A stretch of DNA of 64,000 nucleotides, taken from the NCBI GenBank assembly GCA_031082205.1, contig JAVHLJ010000001.1:1-64000 (forward strand), given 5' to 3'. The position numbers were made by a program, and so were the translations under genes. The notes under the pieces were generated by a model. That model ran no database searches, was not told the origin of the DNA, and was given only the letters and a program-made list of their open reading frames with translations. The DNA comes from Elusimicrobiales bacterium. Lineage in GTDB: Bacteria; Elusimicrobiota; Elusimicrobia; Elusimicrobiales; UBA9959. Shown piece after piece: positions 2,269 to 51,848 of this stretch (its first letter is position 1; every line of letters begins with the position of its first letter).

Positions 2269-4017
2269 ATGGCAAGAAAGAAGCTCGGCGAAATACTGAT
2301 CCAGTCAGGCGTCATCAGCGAGGAACAGCTCGCCAAGGCGCTCAAGTTCCAGACCCAGTCCCCTTGCCTCATCGGCGAGGCGCTGGTAAAGCTGCATTAC
2401 GCCAGCGAGGAGCAGGTGGCGATAGCCCTTTCCAAACAGCTGGGCAGCCCCTACGCCTCGCGCGAGAACAAGATACTCAGCCCCGAAAAATCCCAGGGGC
2501 TGGATAAGATCGTCTCCGAGAAATTCGCCCGTGAAAACGCGGTCGTGCCGCTGTTCATAGAGGATAATATCCTCGCGGTGGCGATGGCCGATCCCACCAA
2601 TATCCTTCTGCTCGATAATATAAAGATGGTCGCGGGCATGGAGATAACGCCTTTCATCTCCACGCGCGAGCAGATACTCAAGGTCATCGATGTTTTCTAC
2701 GGCGGCCAGGCCGGCGACCTTATCGACAAGGTCATGGAGAGCGGAGACGGCAAGGACGTCGCCGGGGGGGACGTAGCCGACGCCCTGACCCCCGACGGCA
2801 AGCTCGACCTGGACAAGGTGATAGTGGGAGACAGCCGCGGCGCCCAGTCCATACAGCTGGTCAACGCCATCCTGAAGCAGGCCATCGGCGAGCGCACCTC
2901 GGACATACACCTGGAGAAGTTCGACGAGAAGATCTCGCTGCGCTTCCGCATAGACGGCACGCTCTACGAGCGCAGCGCCCCGCCGACCGAGCTCTTCGAC
3001 GCCATCATCTCGCGCTTCAAGATCCTTTCCAAGCTCGACATCTCCGAGCGCCGCCTGCCGCAGGACGGCAGCTTCACCATCAAGTTCCAGAGCCGCAACA
3101 TCGAGAACCGCGTAAGCGTCTGTCCCACCGTCTTCGGCGAGAAGCTGGTGCTCCGCATCATGGACCGCGGTTCCGTGGAACTGAACATAGAAAAAATAGG
3201 CTTCGAGCCGCGCCAGAAAGAGGACTTCCTCAAAGCCGCAGAGTCGCCTCACGGCCTGATACTCCTGACCGGCCCCACCGGCTCCGGTAAGACCACCACT
3301 CTCAACGCCGTGCTTAACACGGTCAAATCCCCCGAGATAAACATCATGACGCTGGAGGACCCGGTCGAAATAAAAATGGAGGGCGTCAGCCAGGTGCAGA
3401 TAAAGCCCGCCATAGGCCTGACCTTCGCCTCCGGCCTGCGCTCCTTCCTCCGCCAGGACCCGGACGTCATACTGGTCGGCGAAACCCGCGACAACGAGAC
3501 GGCCGAGGCCTGCCTCAAGGCGGCCATGACCGGCCATCTCGTGCTTTCCACGCTGCACACCAACAGCGCGCTCGAGGCCGTGCCGCGCCTCATCGACATG
3601 GATATCGAGGCGTACCTGCTGGCGAGCACTCTCCTGCTGGTGGCGGCCCAGCGCCTGGTCCGCGTCCTCTGCGACTGCAAGATCCCCTACAAGCCCCCGC
3701 AGGAAGAGCTGGATATGTTCGCCAGGGAGTCCTTCCTTAACCCGCTGCCGGACCTCAACCGCCTGATCTTCTACAAGGCCAAGGGCTGTCCCAAATGCTT
3801 CGATATGGGCTACAAGGGCCGCAAGGCCATCTACGAGGTGTATTTCATCACCGAGGAGATCAAGCGCATCATCTCCAAGGACGCCGATATCCCCAAGATG
3901 AAAGTGGCCGCGGCCAAAGGCGGCGCCTGGGACCTGCGGGCCAGCGGCTGGCGCAAGGTCCTGGCGGGCGTGACCTCGGTGGACGACATGATGTCGGTCA
4001 CGATGGTGGAGCACTGA
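2269..4017 (+). CDS. pilB: Type IV pilus assembly / T2SS ATPase (PilB/GspE)
   Basis: N-terminal MshEN-like domain, Walker A GPTGSGKTTTLNAVL, Asp/His boxes (LEDPVE, GHLVLSTLHTN), RQDPDVILVGETRD. Confidence 0.93.
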   Translation: MARKKLGEILIQSGVISEEQLAKALKFQTQSPCLIGEALVKLHYASEEQVAIALSKQLGSPYASRENKILSPEKSQGLDKIVSEKFARENAVVPLFIEDNILAVAMADPTNILLLDNIKMVAGMEITPFISTREQILKVIDVFYGGQAGDLIDKVMESGDGKDVAGGDVADALTPDGKLDLDKVIVGDSRGAQSIQLVNAILKQAIGERTSDIHLEKFDEKISLRFRIDGTLYERSAPPTELFDAIISRFKILSKLDISERRLPQDGSFTIKFQSRNIENRVSVCPTVFGEKLVLRIMDRGSVELNIEKIGFEPRQKEDFLKAAESPHGLILLTGPTGSGKTTTLNAVLNTVKSPEINIMTLEDPVEIKMEGVSQVQIKPAIGLTFASGLRSFLRQDPDVILVGETRDNETAEACLKAAMTGHLVLSTLHTNSALEAVPRLIDMDIEAYLLASTLLLVAAQRLVRVLCDCKIPYKPPQEELDMFARESFLNPLPDLNRLIFYKAKGCPKCFDMGYKGRKAIYEVYFITEEIKRIISKDADIPKMKVAAAKGGAWDLRASGWRKVLAGVTSVDDMMSVTMVEH

Positions 4018-46627: not shown

Positions 46628-46701
46628 GCCCCCTTAGCTCAACCGGATAGAGCATCTGCCTTCGGAGCAGAGGGTTGGAGGTTCAAATCCTCCAGGGGGC
46701 A
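46628..46701 (+). tRNA. tRNA-Arg (anticodon TCG)
   Basis: Cloverleaf GCCCCCT...TCTGC-CTTCGGA-GCAGA...GGAGGTTCAAATCCTCC-AGGGGGC-A; CCA not encoded. Confidence 0.95.
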
Positions 46702-46704
46702 CGG
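46684..46704 (+). repeat. Direct repeat copy 1 (tRNA 3' end), CAAATCCTCCAGGGGGCACGG
   Basis: Exact 21-nt match to 46938-46958. Confidence 0.95.
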
Positions 46705-46720
46705 TTTCCGTGCACGCTGA

Positions 46721-46947
46721 GCGGACCAATAGTTTGGTCCGCGGGAGGATTTGAAAGGCGGACGCGCGAGGCGACCACGCCGCAGCGCGGAGCCGGGGCC
46801 GAGGGTCCCGAGGAGCGGCGGCGACGAGGTGAGGACCTGCGGCGCAGGTCCGCAAGGCCGGAGGCGCTTTTTCAGCGAAAAGCGCCGAGGCGTGGCCGAA
46901 GAAAGCCGCTATGCGGCTTATCGGAGGCACCCGTGGCCAAATCCTCC
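46721..46947. other. tRNA-linked structured intergenic element A (hairpin plus inverted-repeat-bounded multibranched region)
   Basis: Hairpin 46721-46742; outer arms GGAGGATTTG 46744-46753 / CAAATCCTCC 46938-46947; inner CCACGCC 46775-46781 / GGCGTGG 46889-46895; hairpins 46833-46851, 46863-46886, 46903-46919. Confidence 0.75.
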
Positions 46948-46958
46948 AGGGGGCACGG
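46938..46958 (+). repeat. Direct repeat copy 2 of the tRNA 3' end
   Basis: CAAATCCTCCAGGGGGCACGG, exact match, 254 bp downstream of copy 1. Confidence 0.95.
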
Positions 46959-46962
46959 GTTG

Positions 46963-47171
46963 CAGGTTTCCCCCGGGGACACGCGCCCGTCACGGTTCGC
47001 TTTTTCCGGGATGCACCTTCGCTCCGTTCGGCCGGGCACGAACTCGGCCCGGGCGCACGGCGCCTCGGGCCTCAGACATTCATGCCCGTCCGGCAATGCC
47101 GGTGCCCTCACTGCGTTCGGGGAAAAAGTTCTTCATGTTCCTCGCCGCGTGTCCCCGGGAGAAACCGCCTG
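46963..47171. repeat. Inverted-repeat-bounded intergenic element B
   Basis: CAGGTTTCCCCCGGGGACACGCG (46963-46985) vs CGCGTGTCCCCGGGAGAAACCGCCTG (47146-47171); 14-bp perfect core CCCGGGGACACGCG. Confidence 0.75.
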
Positions 47172-47250: not shown

Positions 47251-48345
47251 ATGAACGCGCAGTTGGTCACGGCGCTCTGCCTTTTTTTGACTTCTCCCGC
47301 GGCCGCGGAGGACGGCAAGTCCCTCGGCCGCAGGGCCCTGGAGACCGTGGTCGCCCATCTGAACGACGCCGACTCCGAGGTCAGGGAGCGGGCCATACGC
47401 GTCATGGGGGAGACCGGCAACAGGGGAGCCGCCGCCACCCTGCGCAAATCGCTGGCCGACCCGGACAAGCATGTCCGCATAGCGGCCGCCGAGGCGCTCT
47501 GGAAGATCGGGGACGCGTCCGGCCTCAAGACCGTCACCGCCATAATAAACGACAAGCCGGCCCAGGGCCCGATCGCCAATTCTCCGCTCGTGGAGCTGAA
47601 GGTCATATCCCAGAACAACATACGCGCCCGCGCGGTGCAGGCCCTGGCCTCGATGCGCGGGAAAAAGGCGGAGCAGGAACTTTTCGCCCTGCGCAACGAT
47701 AATTTCGGCAAGATACGCGACGCCGCGGCGCTGCAGCTGGCGCGCCTGGGCCACGGTGAAGAGCTGGAGCAGTTCATAGCCGCGCTGGCCAGCCCCGACG
47801 AGGCGATACGCCACGAGGGGGCCTCCGCCCTGGCCTCGATCTGTTCGCGGAACGCCGTCGCGCCCCTGCGCGACCTCCTGGCCGGGGAAGCCTCGGTTCG
47901 GGTAAAGATGGCCGCGCTGGAGGCGCTGGCCTGCTCTCCAGGCAGGGATTCCGCCCTGGCCGAGATCCTGTCCCTCTCCTCCGACAAGAACCCGAGCGTC
48001 AGCGTGAAGGCGCTGGCCGCCCTGGGGGGAATAAAGAACGCCAAGGCTTTCGAGAAACTTTCCGCCGTCGTGGAGGATACGGAAAGCGATCTCATATTGA
48101 AACTGGCCGCCTCGGGCGCGCTGGCTCAGGCTGGACGCAGGCCTCCCGCCGCCCTCATCAGGCGGGCCGCCGATTCCAACAGCTTGGAGGCCAGGCGGGC
48201 GGGGCTCGAACTCCTGCCTCACCTTACGGACGAAGAGGCCTCTCCATACCTTGAAAATCTCCTTTCGGACCCCGATCTTAACATAAGGCTTGAGGCGGCC
48301 CTGCACTCTCTCAAACGTTTCGCCGCCCCGGAGAGGAAAAAGTGA
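47251..48345 (+). CDS. Secreted HEAT-repeat protein
   Basis: Signal peptide MNAQLVTALCLFLTSPAAAED; repeats such as HLNDADSEVRERAIRVMGETGNRGAAATLRKSLADPDKHVRIAAAEALWKIGD. Track ORF starts at 47221. Confidence 0.82.
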   Translation: MNAQLVTALCLFLTSPAAAEDGKSLGRRALETVVAHLNDADSEVRERAIRVMGETGNRGAAATLRKSLADPDKHVRIAAAEALWKIGDASGLKTVTAIINDKPAQGPIANSPLVELKVISQNNIRARAVQALASMRGKKAEQELFALRNDNFGKIRDAAALQLARLGHGEELEQFIAALASPDEAIRHEGASALASICSRNAVAPLRDLLAGEASVRVKMAALEALACSPGRDSALAEILSLSSDKNPSVSVKALAALGGIKNAKAFEKLSAVVEDTESDLILKLAASGALAQAGRRPPAALIRRAADSNSLEARRAGLELLPHLTDEEASPYLENLLSDPDLNIRLEAALHSLKRFAAPERKK

Positions 48346-51300
48346 CGCGCTCTTTCCTTATATCTATGCTCATGCTGCCGGCCCTCTCCGGCGCGCTTTT
48401 CGCCGGCCCGGGGCAACACGGCCGGTCGGCACGGCTGAGCCCGCTGGCGGACTCGCTCCGCCCGGCCAAAGCCGTTCCTTCATCGGCCAGGATAAAGCAG
48501 GTCAGGGATTTCAGCGATAAGAGCCGCAAGCCCTGGCGCGTGCGCTTCAGCCCCCGCACCGCCCTCCCGGAATCGATAGTCGAGGGCGAGAGCCGCGCTT
48601 ACGGCCCCGGAGCCGAGGCCGCCGCGGCCGCCTTCCTGGACGAGAACCGCGAGATGCTCTCGGTGGACCGTTCGGAACTGCGCCTGGCCCATTCCAGGAC
48701 CTACGCCGGCATCACCCACCTGCAGTACGAACAGGTGCACAAGGGCCTGCCGGTGGAGTTCGCCTATGTCCGGGTTCACCTTACCGCCGACGGGCGGGTC
48801 ACGGGTTACCAGGCCAAGTACGAGCCCGCCATAAACATATCCCTCTCTCCCTCCTTGAGCGCCGAAGCCGCCAAGTCCGCCGTCCTGTCCGACCTGGGCT
48901 ATCCCGCCCGCTCCGAGGCTAAACTGGTCATTTTCCCCGACGAGTTCAACGGGGGGCTTAAACTGGCCTGGAAGATCCGCGCCCGCGGCGGCGCCCTCGG
49001 GTCAGGCATCTGGATCTATTATGTGGACGCGCATGACGGCTCGGTCCTCTTCAGGTACGACGACCTGCGCAGGGCCGCCTGCACCGGCTCGCATGACACC
49101 ACCGGAACAGTGAGAGGGCTGGTATTTCCCGTATCGCCGTACCCCACCTCGACCCTCGGCTGGCAGCAGACCAGCACCCTGACCATACGCAGCCAGTACG
49201 TCTGGGTGAAGAACTATTCTTCGGCCGCCGTTACCGACACCAACGGGATCTATTGCGCGGGCGACAGCCCGACGGCCGGGCTGGGCGAGGGAAAGGTCTT
49301 CGCCGGGCTCAAGGGACCCTATTTCTCGGTCTCCAATTTCCGGGGGCCCGGCGGCCATTTCGACAACGGTTCCGGCGTATGGATGACCAAGGCGGCTTCC
49401 GTCGTCTCGCAGCCGGCCTACGCCCCGGACGCGGCCTACGAATACGACCTTACCGTCAACGATTCCGACTGGAACACGACGTATCCTTCGGGCTCCTTCG
49501 CCAAGGTAGTGCCCCGCTTCAACACTTTCAGCGTCGGCTCCATGGACGAGGACGGCGTAGTCCTTGACGCCGACCACGTGGTGGTGGTCAACGGCGCCGG
49601 CCACGTCAAGCCGGGCGCCAGGGCCGGCTCTTACAGGGGCACGCGCACCTCGCCCTTCTACGGCGCGGCCGTGGAAAGCCCCTCTTACAAGGTCCGCCTG
49701 GTCTCCGACGAGGCGGGCAACTCCGGCTCTTTCACCGTCACCCAGTCCAGCTACCTGGTGCTTACCAACAACGTCTCCGTACCCAACAACGCCACGGGCT
49801 CTTTCATCTGGAACCATTCCAGGTTCATGGACGGCAGGCTGGACGAGGTCAACGCCTTCTACCATCTCAACGCCATACGCGATTTCTTCACGCCGGTCAA
49901 TAAGGACCCCTCCGCCCCCTCCGGCCAGACCCCCGCCGACCTGGACAGGCCGGTCGAAGTGATGGTGCGGGCCCACGGCCGGGCGGACCAGCTCAATACT
50001 TTGGGCGGCATGCTCAACGCTTTCTACGACCTCGAAAGCGACCATATCTACTTCGGCGACGGGCCGGTCTGCCAGGGGTCCAGCTGCCCCGCCCCCTACA
50101 GCTCGTTCGCGCTGGACGGCACGGTGGTGCGCCACGAATACATCCACCTGGTCATCAACCGCATATACCCGATAATAAATTTCGGCGAATTCGGCGCCAT
50201 CTCGGAGGCCATGGCCGATTACTTCGCCATCTCCTCCTTCATAGGGGAAGGACAGAACGTCCCCGTCACGGGCCTCTATATCGACGAGGGGGAGGCGGCC
50301 TCCCGCGACCTCTCCGGCACCGCCACCAAGACGGACGGCACCCTGATAAACGGCGTGAAGGTCATGCCGACGCATTGGCACGGCGAGATACACGACGACA
50401 GCCTCTTCCTCTCCCAGGCGCTCTACAAACTGCGCAACGGCACGGCGTCCCAGACGCTGGGCGTTTTCAACGCCAGCCCGGCTGCCTTCGCCGGCCTGCC
50501 ACGGGCCGACGTCTTCGCCTTCGCGGCGCTATTCTATTTTCCCGACAATTTCGCCAATTTCTACGAGGCTTTCGTCGACGCCTGCCGTCAGATAGACGGG
50601 GCGGACTGCAACGCCGATACCATCTCCCGCATCAGCACCGCCTTCAACGACCACGGGATAGCCCCGAGCTATTACGACACCGGCGACTTCTACGAGACCA
50701 ACAACAACGCCTCCGAACTCTGCCGGAACAACAACGGCCCCCAGTGCGCCACCGACATAAGCACGATGACCTCGGTCTCGGCCTCGATATACCCGCAGGC
50801 CGACGTTGATTATTACGGCTTCGTCGCCCCGGCCGGCTCCATAAGGGCCGCGCTCACGCTGCCCGCCGGCAGCGAGTCCAACACCTACCACGCCTATTCG
50901 TTATACCTGCTGGACGCGGACCGCAACCTGCTGGCGACCGGCGACCCGGTCATCTTCAAGGGCGACACCACCTACTGGGGCTTCTGTCCCTCGGCCGGGA
51001 CTCCGGAGTGCCTTACCCTCTCCCCGACCGTGGGCCTCGAATATTCCGCCCCGATACCGGGCAGGTACTACATCATGGTAGCGGCCGGACCCACGGTATA
51101 TTACGGCAACGGCGGCGGCAACAGCCCCTCGCATTACAGGCTGTCGGTGGACGCTTCGCCGAGGGGGTCCGCGACGGCCGGCATATTCTCGCCGTCCTAC
51201 GACAGGGACGAGATAAACTTCGCGGTACCGTACACCACTTTCGAGATGAACGTGCATCCGTCGTCGGATACGACCAGCGCCGAACTGGAGTACCAGTACG

Positions 51301-51848
51301 CCTCGCTGCGGGACCACAACTTCGTGCCGATACCGCTGGCGCGCACCGACCTGGCCTCGGGCTACCTGGAGACGGTGGCGGGGACCATACTCCCGGGCAG
51401 CGATTCCCGCGGCGACCCGGTGCTCAACGGGCGCGTGCGCCTCAAGCCCGGCTTCTCGGCCCGCTACCCCGCGATAGGCACGGTCTACCTGGAAGTGTTC
51501 GGCCGCAATCACATGGGCCGGGTGATGTCCATGGGCGTGTCCAACCCGCTGGCGCTGTCGGCCAACCGCGCCTCGCTTACGACCTACGAGAACATCATCT
51601 CTCCCTCCAACCGCAGCGCCGTAATACGCTACGAGCTGCTTTCGGCCGGCACCCTCACCATAAACGCCTACACTGTGAGCGGCGCTCTGGTGAAAACGAT
51701 ATACAGCGGCCCGGTCCCCGCCGGCAAGGGCACCGTGGAATGGGACGGGACCAATTCTTCCGGCGGCAAGGCCGCCAGCGGCATCTATTACATAAAGGCG
51801 GAGGGCCCTGGCCTCGACACCGTGGAGAAGGTGGCTATCGTAAGGTAG
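48342..51848 (+). CDS. Secreted M4/M36-type metalloprotease with FTP-like propeptide and C-terminal FlgD/T9SS-like domain
   Basis: FTP-like region (FLDENREMLSVDRSELRLAHSRTYAGITHLQYEQVHKGLPVEFAYVRVHL), HEYIH zinc motif with GAISEAMADYFAIS, C-terminal INAYTVSGALVKTIYSGPVPAGKGTVEWDGTNSSGGKAASGIYYIKAEGPGLDTVEKVAIVR. Confidence 0.85.
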   Translation: MTRSFLISMLMLPALSGALFAGPGQHGRSARLSPLADSLRPAKAVPSSARIKQVRDFSDKSRKPWRVRFSPRTALPESIVEGESRAYGPGAEAAAAAFLDENREMLSVDRSELRLAHSRTYAGITHLQYEQVHKGLPVEFAYVRVHLTADGRVTGYQAKYEPAINISLSPSLSAEAAKSAVLSDLGYPARSEAKLVIFPDEFNGGLKLAWKIRARGGALGSGIWIYYVDAHDGSVLFRYDDLRRAACTGSHDTTGTVRGLVFPVSPYPTSTLGWQQTSTLTIRSQYVWVKNYSSAAVTDTNGIYCAGDSPTAGLGEGKVFAGLKGPYFSVSNFRGPGGHFDNGSGVWMTKAASVVSQPAYAPDAAYEYDLTVNDSDWNTTYPSGSFAKVVPRFNTFSVGSMDEDGVVLDADHVVVVNGAGHVKPGARAGSYRGTRTSPFYGAAVESPSYKVRLVSDEAGNSGSFTVTQSSYLVLTNNVSVPNNATGSFIWNHSRFMDGRLDEVNAFYHLNAIRDFFTPVNKDPSAPSGQTPADLDRPVEVMVRAHGRADQLNTLGGMLNAFYDLESDHIYFGDGPVCQGSSCPAPYSSFALDGTVVRHEYIHLVINRIYPIINFGEFGAISEAMADYFAISSFIGEGQNVPVTGLYIDEGEAASRDLSGTATKTDGTLINGVKVMPTHWHGEIHDDSLFLSQALYKLRNGTASQTLGVFNASPAAFAGLPRADVFAFAALFYFPDNFANFYEAFVDACRQIDGADCNADTISRISTAFNDHGIAPSYYDTGDFYETNNNASELCRNNNGPQCATDISTMTSVSASIYPQADVDYYGFVAPAGSIRAALTLPAGSESNTYHAYSLYLLDADRNLLATGDPVIFKGDTTYWGFCPSAGTPECLTLSPTVGLEYSAPIPGRYYIMVAAGPTVYYGNGGGNSPSHYRLSVDASPRGSATAGIFSPSYDRDEINFAVPYTTFEMNVHPSSDTTSAELEYQYASLRDHNFVPIPLARTDLASGYLETVAGTILPGSDSRGDPVLNGRVRLKPGFSARYPAIGTVYLEVFGRNHMGRVMSMGVSNPLALSANRASLTTYENIISPSNRSAVIRYELLSAGTLTINAYTVSGALVKTIYSGPVPAGKGTVEWDGTNSSGGKAASGIYYIKAEGPGLDTVEKVAIVR

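What the first reader, a model, noticed from the sequence alone, without database searches (positions are those of the whole stretch)
46628..46958. Exact 21-nt copy of the tRNA-Arg 3' end 254 bp downstream, bounding a structured non-coding element
CAAATCCTCCAGGGGGCACGG (T-arm 3' half, acceptor strand and 3 nt beyond) occurs exactly at 46684-46704 and 46938-46958, like an att duplication from tRNA-targeted integration. The interval has no credible protein. Instead it holds GGAGGATTTG (46744-46753), the reverse complement of the repeat's start, so the segment is also an inverted repeat. Between these arms are nested CCACGCC/GGCGTGG arms and three hairpins (GGACCTGC-GGC-GCAGGTCC; GGCGCTTTT-tcagcg-AAAAGCGCC; AAGCCGC-TAT-GCGGCTT). 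This looks like either a minimal tRNA-targeting element or a structured RNA co-transcribed with the tRNA. The spare T-arm copies could also pair with the tRNA. This is my best candidate for something undescribed.
Basis: partly seen in the sequence, partly recalled or inferred. Interest (0 to 1): 0.82.

Follow-up and report, generated by a model that had tools for sequence, protein, structure and literature searches.

The report
Mobile repeat copying tRNA 3' ends
Behind this tRNA gene sits a small folded DNA element that recurs behind most kinds of tRNA gene in Elusimicrobiota, each copy carrying a forward and a reversed copy of its own host tRNA's 3' end; it is built like the old, poorly understood 'RtT' repeats of E. 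coli and shows that such repeats move between tRNA genes and are re-matched to each one.

Summary
Confirmed and extended. The 21-nt copy of the tRNA-Arg(TCG) 3' end at 46938-46958 is the right edge of a 254-bp unit, absent at the orthologous tRNA in a sister genome (L038). A covariance model of the element finds it in 90 of 249 Elusimicrobiota genomes; nearly all copies examined lie 6-64 nt behind a tRNA (14 amino acids), on the tRNA strand, some as tandem arrays. Layout: anti-acceptor, hairpin P2, anti-T-arm, folded core, then a second copy of that tRNA's 3' end from nt 57. Both arms match the copy's own tRNA (permutations, hold-out). Cores up to 96.5% identical sit behind different tRNAs with different arms, so the element moves and is re-matched. 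Anti arm and copy decay independently, so matching looks templated from the tRNA. The architecture is that of E. coli RtT repeats (tyrT; also proK, shown here), but the RF00391 model does not score Elusimicrobiota copies. No integrase, reverse transcriptase or Y1 transposase tracks it; how it moves, and whether its RNA acts, is open.

The parts
46628..46702 (+). tRNA-Arg(TCG), the host gene
   Evidence: ARAGORN and Rfam RF00005, 71 bits
46684..46704 (+). T1: first copy of the direct repeat (T-loop to just past the tRNA end); intact part of the tRNA
   Evidence: the repeat finder D1
46708..46719 (+). P1a 5' arm, anti-acceptor CCGTGCACGCTG (10 of 12 complementary to CAGGGGGCACGG); G003 has CATGCCCCCTG
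   Evidence: sequence; anti-acceptor test
46721..46742 (+). P2 hairpin GCGGACCAA-TAGT-TTGGTCCGC inserted between anti-acceptor and anti-T
   Evidence: the repeat finder I14; helix 1 has changes on both sides in 4 of 7 pairs
46744..46753 (+). P1b 5' arm, anti-T-arm GGAGGATTTG, complementary to the T arm of this tRNA
   Evidence: (I4, I7)
46754..46828 (+). core of element A, first part (AAAG, P3 with GA internal loops, 5' half of P4)
   Evidence: alignment A1 and model R1; R1 match 46718-46854, 103 bits
46829..46928 (+). nested repeat B (three hairpins), absent from the orthologous element in G002
   Evidence: model R2 match 46844-46928, 102 bits
46929..46937 (+). end of the core of element A (3' strand of P4, ACCCGTGGC)
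   Evidence: alignment with L011
46938..46958 (+). T2: second copy of the tRNA 3' end, 3' arm of P1; right edge of the 254-bp unit

Best explanation
The element is a short, non-coding, non-autonomous mobile repeat that inserts at the T loop (nt 56/57) of tRNA genes. It leaves the tRNA intact because the tRNA 3' end is duplicated (T1, T2). SHOWN: unit boundaries, empty and filled sites, tandem arrays, many host tRNAs, arms matched to the own tRNA, near-identical cores with different arms. INFERRED: it moves through a folded single strand of tRNA-sense polarity (RNA or ssDNA; conserved G-U pairs), held at the target by the anti arm; both arms are written from the host tRNA when it inserts, or soon after by template switching on the palindrome. 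Unit number then changes by recombination between T repeats. The enzyme is unknown. In the window a second repeat (B) later inserted into the core.
For: Empty site: L038 (WAS_Bin_5) matches the window on both sides once 254 bp are removed. R1 hits in 90/249 phylum genomes. Arms match the own tRNA: anti-T 7.53 vs 4.68 +/- 0.15, anti-acceptor 5.83 vs 3.16 +/- 0.13, T2 13.1 vs 5.34 +/- 0.24 over 200 permutations, n=70. Hold-out of 22: 7.77 vs 5.23 +/- 0.24, 5.41 vs 3.53 +/- 0.21, 14.2 vs 6.12 +/- 0.55. Re-matching: cores in G002 behind Arg-TCG and Met are 96.5% identical, arms differ. Tandem units with T plus the tRNA's terminator, e.g. L168 period 194. Anti arm and T2 decay separately from the tRNA: 23 vs 19 lone changes, 1 shared change, of 464 sites. 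G-U 209 vs A-C 90 in paired columns. Same layout in E. coli tyrT and proK RtT.
Against: No enzyme tracks the element: G000 has two tyrosine recombinases, one Y1 transposase, no reverse transcriptase. No insertion has been seen in real time. Gain versus loss at the window's site is unresolved (star-like tree). The strong core structure could also mean a host function. The within-tRNA decay test has few events. Many hits lie in MAGs, some at contig ends.
Confidence: 0.66

Rival explanations
1. A functional structured RNA made from the tRNA transcript (like E. coli RtT/RttR): the T2 end is processed as a mock tRNA 3' end, and the released RNA regulates something (stringent response, tRNA processing, sRNA sponge). 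It is kept by selection and merely duplicated between tRNAs.
For: Strong covariation in P2, P3 and P4; conserved G-U pairs on the tRNA-sense strand; nearly always on the tRNA strand; RttR is an annotated RNA in MG1655.
Against: Patchy: present at 10 of 56 listed yebC-linked tRNA-Arg(TCG) loci and lacking in many relatives; a terminator-like T run sits between tRNA and element in 36 of 72; different tRNA sets in each genome.
Confidence: 0.2
2. The scar or remnant of an ordinary integrase-carrying island: att duplication only, the interior being chance palindromic junk.
For: Direct repeat at a tRNA 3' end, as for tyrosine-integrase islands; one locus with a Fic-type ORF between tRNA-Met and an element (L226) and one with an ORF between tRNA-Gln and an element (L037).
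Against: The interior is the same folded core in 90 genomes and at dozens of tRNAs; it carries an inverted copy of the host tRNA, which att sites lack; no integrase seen in the flanks of copies whose ORFs were listed.
Confidence: 0.05
3. A REP/BIME-like palindrome family, mobilised by a RAYT (Y1) transposase, that happens to favour tRNA ends; A and B are two subfamilies.
For: B shares the core layout and is dispersed in non-tRNA sites; rtT-like sequences in E. coli have been linked to BIMEs (PMC2965389; PMC12306157 lists rttR as REP-bearing); most f1 genomes have a Y1_Tnp gene.
Against: All but one of the f2 genomes searched lack Y1_Tnp at E<=1e-5, yet several hold 5-16 copies; REPs carry no copy of their target.
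Confidence: 0.09

Closest known systems
RtT RNA / rtT repeats (Rfam RF00391; E. coli tyrT, rttR)
   Same: Tandem units behind a tRNA; each unit ends in a copy of the tRNA 3' end (AATCCTTCCCCCACCACCA) and holds an inverted anti-T arm (GGGGAAGGAT) pairing with it around a structured core. In E. coli strain CKJ_1000_3.1 it also sits behind tRNA-Pro, with arms matched to tRNA-Pro.
   Different: The RF00391 model gives no hit over cut-off in 37 Elusimicrobiota genomes while the E. coli control rings. Elusimicrobiota copies add an anti-acceptor arm and the P2 hairpin, have another core, and occur behind tRNAs of at least 14 amino acids rather than the two tRNA loci seen in E. coli here.
tRNA-targeting integrative elements (attL/attR duplications)
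   Same: Direct repeat from the T loop to past the tRNA end; tRNA stays whole.
   Different: No integrase, no cargo in the unit itself, an inverted copy of the tRNA, conserved folded core, re-matched to many tRNAs.
REP/BIME and other bacterial palindromic repeats (MITEs)
   Same: Short, dispersed, palindromic, non-coding, nested insertions (B in A).
   Different: Target-matched arms and a fixed place and strand behind tRNAs.
Integron attC sites
   Same: Folded site with paired arms and an apical structure; arrays of units sharing the junction sequence (analogy only).
   Different: Integron integrase was not searched for by its own model; G000 has only two tyrosine recombinases of Xer size; the target is the tRNA.

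Membership tests
RtT (RF00391) | Unit behind a tRNA ends in a copy of that tRNA's 3' end | tested here: met
RtT (RF00391) | Inverted anti-T arm pairs with that copy around a core (P1 of the Rfam consensus) | tested here: met
   (helix 2, 96.2% of cells paired)
RtT (RF00391) | Tandem array of units | tested here: met
   met at other loci (L152, L165, L168, L170, L183); the window has a single unit
RtT (RF00391) | Scores above the Rfam gathering cut-off | tested here: not met
   0 of 37 genomes, E. coli control positive; no RtT hit in the window at E<=5
RtT (RF00391) | Stable RNA cut from the tRNA transcript | not testable with these tools
   no RNA data
Integrase-borne tRNA island | Integrase gene in or next to the element | tested here: not met
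   no credible ORF in the unit; two PF00589 proteins in G000, on other contigs
Integrase-borne tRNA island | Direct repeat of the tRNA 3' part and an empty site | tested here: met
REP/BIME with RAYT transposase | Y1 transposase in genomes with copies | tested here: inconclusive
   present in G000 and most f1 genomes, absent from f2 genomes with copies
Retroelement / group II intron | Reverse transcriptase in the genome | tested here: not met
   none in G000, G022, G042, all with many copies
IS110/IS1111 guide-RNA element | DEDD transposase and bridge RNA | not tested
   considered; no genome search left

The most novel reading that the evidence does not exclude
A class of mobile element, found in at least two phyla, that rewrites its own ends on arrival: on entering a tRNA gene it copies the host tRNA 3' end once forward and once inverted, so its guide arm always matches the present host, with no protein of its own. 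E. coli RtT would be a member.
Probability: 0.3. Interest if true: 0.87.

Novelty: new variant of a known kind. Interest (0 to 1): 0.64.

Why it matters
RtT repeats of E. coli have been known for decades (own knowledge) and are treated as an oddity of tyrT. This shows the same layout as a large, mobile, re-matched family in another phylum, and a second E. coli site (proK) with matched arms and a varying unit number. That makes the origin and movement of RtT testable in ordinary laboratory strains. It also gives a clean model for how a repeat can colonise essential genes without breaking them.

Tried and rejected
Gene-cassette idea (ORFs between tRNA and element in L037, L226): only isolated cases, better read as islands at the same tRNA; rejected. 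Tyrosine recombinase, Y1 transposase and RT as mobiliser: no correlation. Known RNA family: no Rfam hit even at E<=5 except the tRNA and a reverse-strand tRNA look-alike. Tree of cores by tRNA type or genome: too few columns (87); 33 changes for genome, 18 for tRNA type, 17 for genus, not decisive; replaced by direct pairs. Gain or loss at the window site: unresolved star tree. Pairing of the anti arm with T1 versus T2: my first count (41:3 for T1) was biased by conditioning on T1 differing from T2; the fair count shows equal decay. Literature searches found nothing on the Elusimicrobiota repeats; the library is partial.

Full report
WHAT IS THERE. The window is from an Elusimicrobiota genome (G000, 2.75 Mb, 98 contigs; named relatives found through YebC are Elusimicrobia MAGs). 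tRNA-Arg(TCG) lies at 46628-46702, divergent from the yebC-ruvC-ruvA genes (gene names from own reading of the translations). The 21-nt repeat is exact, with spacing 254.

ARCHITECTURE. Reading from the tRNA: T1 (the tRNA's own 3' end); a 12-nt anti-acceptor arm; a hairpin P2; the anti-T arm GGAGGATTTG followed by AAAG; a core of two helices (P3, P4) with GA internal loops; then T2, a second copy of the tRNA 3' end from nt 57. The layout was derived from 13 copies behind different tRNAs. Of 565 cells 92.7% are standard pairs (shuffled 79.2 +/- 0.9), 20 pairs change on both sides (12.7 +/- 1.9), covariation score 0.390 (0.146 +/- 0.014); slid registers fall to 35-42% paired. A conserved G-U pair in P4 (78 rows) and 209 G-U against 90 A-C cells, 58 of the latter from two poorly aligned columns, put the fold on the tRNA-sense strand.

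NESTED REPEAT. In the window the core is interrupted at about 46829-46928 by a second repeat, B. The orthologous element in G002 lacks it. B has 11 matches in G000, mostly away from tRNAs. It shares the core layout (P2-like hairpin, AAG, GCC-GGA-hairpin-GAG-GGC, GTGACC end) and so looks like a sister subfamily (inference).

EMPTY SITE. L038 (WAS_Bin_5, the same genome as G001 by coordinates) has the same tRNA and flanks on both sides, without the element. Deleting 254 bp from the window restores colinearity. G002 and G003 are filled. Of 56 listed tRNA-Arg(TCG) loci linked to yebC, 10 have an R1 match and most others run straight into unrelated sequence. The tree of the four sister genomes is unresolved, so gain and loss cannot be told apart.

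DISTRIBUTION. Model R1 finds 29 of 37 near relatives at E<=1e-3 and 90 of 249 phylum genomes at E<=1e-4, including families outside the order. It finds none in 7 genomes reached through non-Elusimicrobiota loci (an empty answer without a positive control). Among 120 matches in fetched loci, 89 lie within 300 nt downstream of a tRNA on the same strand, 13 on the opposite strand (largely B-type), and 18 have no tRNA that close, several at contig ends. A hold-out of 20 further loci, chosen by R1 score, gave 24 matches: 22 behind a tRNA on the same strand, one beside a contig start, one of B type. Host tRNAs: Arg, Met, Leu, Val, Gln, Ser, Tyr, Asn, Glu, Ala, Pro, Thr, Asp, Trp.

ARMS MATCH THE OWN tRNA. 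Permuting tRNA 3' ends among 70 elements: anti-T 7.53 (4.68 +/- 0.15), anti-acceptor 5.83 (3.16 +/- 0.13), T2 13.1 (5.34 +/- 0.24), never reached in 200 permutations. The hold-out of 22 agrees, never reached in 1000. T1/T2 exact repeats have median length 23 and begin 18-21 nt before the annotated tRNA end in 42 of 57.

MOVEMENT AND RE-MATCHING. Nearly identical cores sit behind different tRNAs: in G002 the copies behind Arg-TCG and Met are 96.5% identical in the core while both arms differ and fit their hosts. Tandem arrays (L168, L152, L165 and others) repeat T, the tRNA trailer (in L168 with its terminator) and the element as one unit. Within one host, anti arm and T2 each drift from the tRNA about equally (23 and 19 lone changes, one shared, of 464 sites). 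Matched arms are therefore better explained by copying from the tRNA than by compensatory evolution of an anti:T2 helix. That is an inference from few events.

MECHANISM. Most likely a non-autonomous mobile repeat using a folded single strand, anchored by the anti arm, with target-templated arms; recombination between T copies changes unit number. The enzyme is unknown: G000 has two tyrosine recombinases, one Y1 transposase and no reverse transcriptase, and none of these families tracks copy number in relatives. In half of the copies a terminator-like T run separates tRNA and element, which weakens an obligatory co-transcribed RNA; in the window there is none.

COMPARISON. E. coli RtT at tyrT has the same layout: anti-T GGGGAAGGAT, core, T2 AATCCTTCCCCCACCACCA, units of 178 bp. 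A further RtT lies behind tRNA-Pro in CKJ_1000_3.1, with arms fitted to that tRNA and 168-bp units whose number differs from EC32. RF00391 does not score Elusimicrobiota genomes, while E. coli rings. So this works like RtT but is not a member of the RF00391 family as modelled; common descent is open.

LIMITS. No RNA data, no observed transposition, MAG assemblies with contig ends at copies, rough E-values from a short calibration, and a partial paper library.

Noticed in passing
window 46965-47166: Another palindromic repeat of about 200 bp (21-nt end repeats, 95% complementary) directly after the element; about 20 further matches in this genome, one with a B repeat inserted in it (L005).
   Followed up: partly
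L295 1348-1643 (E. coli CKJ_1000_3.1): RtT behind tRNA-Pro is annotated as 'processed from tyrT transcript'; its arms fit tRNA-Pro, and the unit number differs from strain EC32 (L297).
   Followed up: yes
L226 1760-4058: Fic-type ORF (2465-3586) between two elements with tRNA-Met arms; the second follows a 3' half of tRNA-Met, as if an island had entered the same tRNA.
   Followed up: partly
L037 278-1616: A 271-aa secreted-looking ORF lies between tRNA-Gln and its element; only the last 8 nt of the tRNA recur before the element.
   Followed up: partly
L233 7168-7752: Behind tRNA-Arg(CCG) in this genome, B occurs reversed in tandem units that each carry a partial copy of the tRNA 3' end starting at nt 62.
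   Followed up: partly
L228 730-960: Orphan element whose tRNA is gone except for the last bases before the terminator.
   Followed up: no
L008 and L029, B repeat next to start codons: The end of some B copies (CGGAGG) lies where a Shine-Dalgarno sequence would be, just before a start codon.
   Followed up: no
window 48342-51848: 1168-aa secreted protein with a HEYIH motif (metalloprotease-like) and a C-terminal SGIYYIK-type repeat domain.
   Followed up: no
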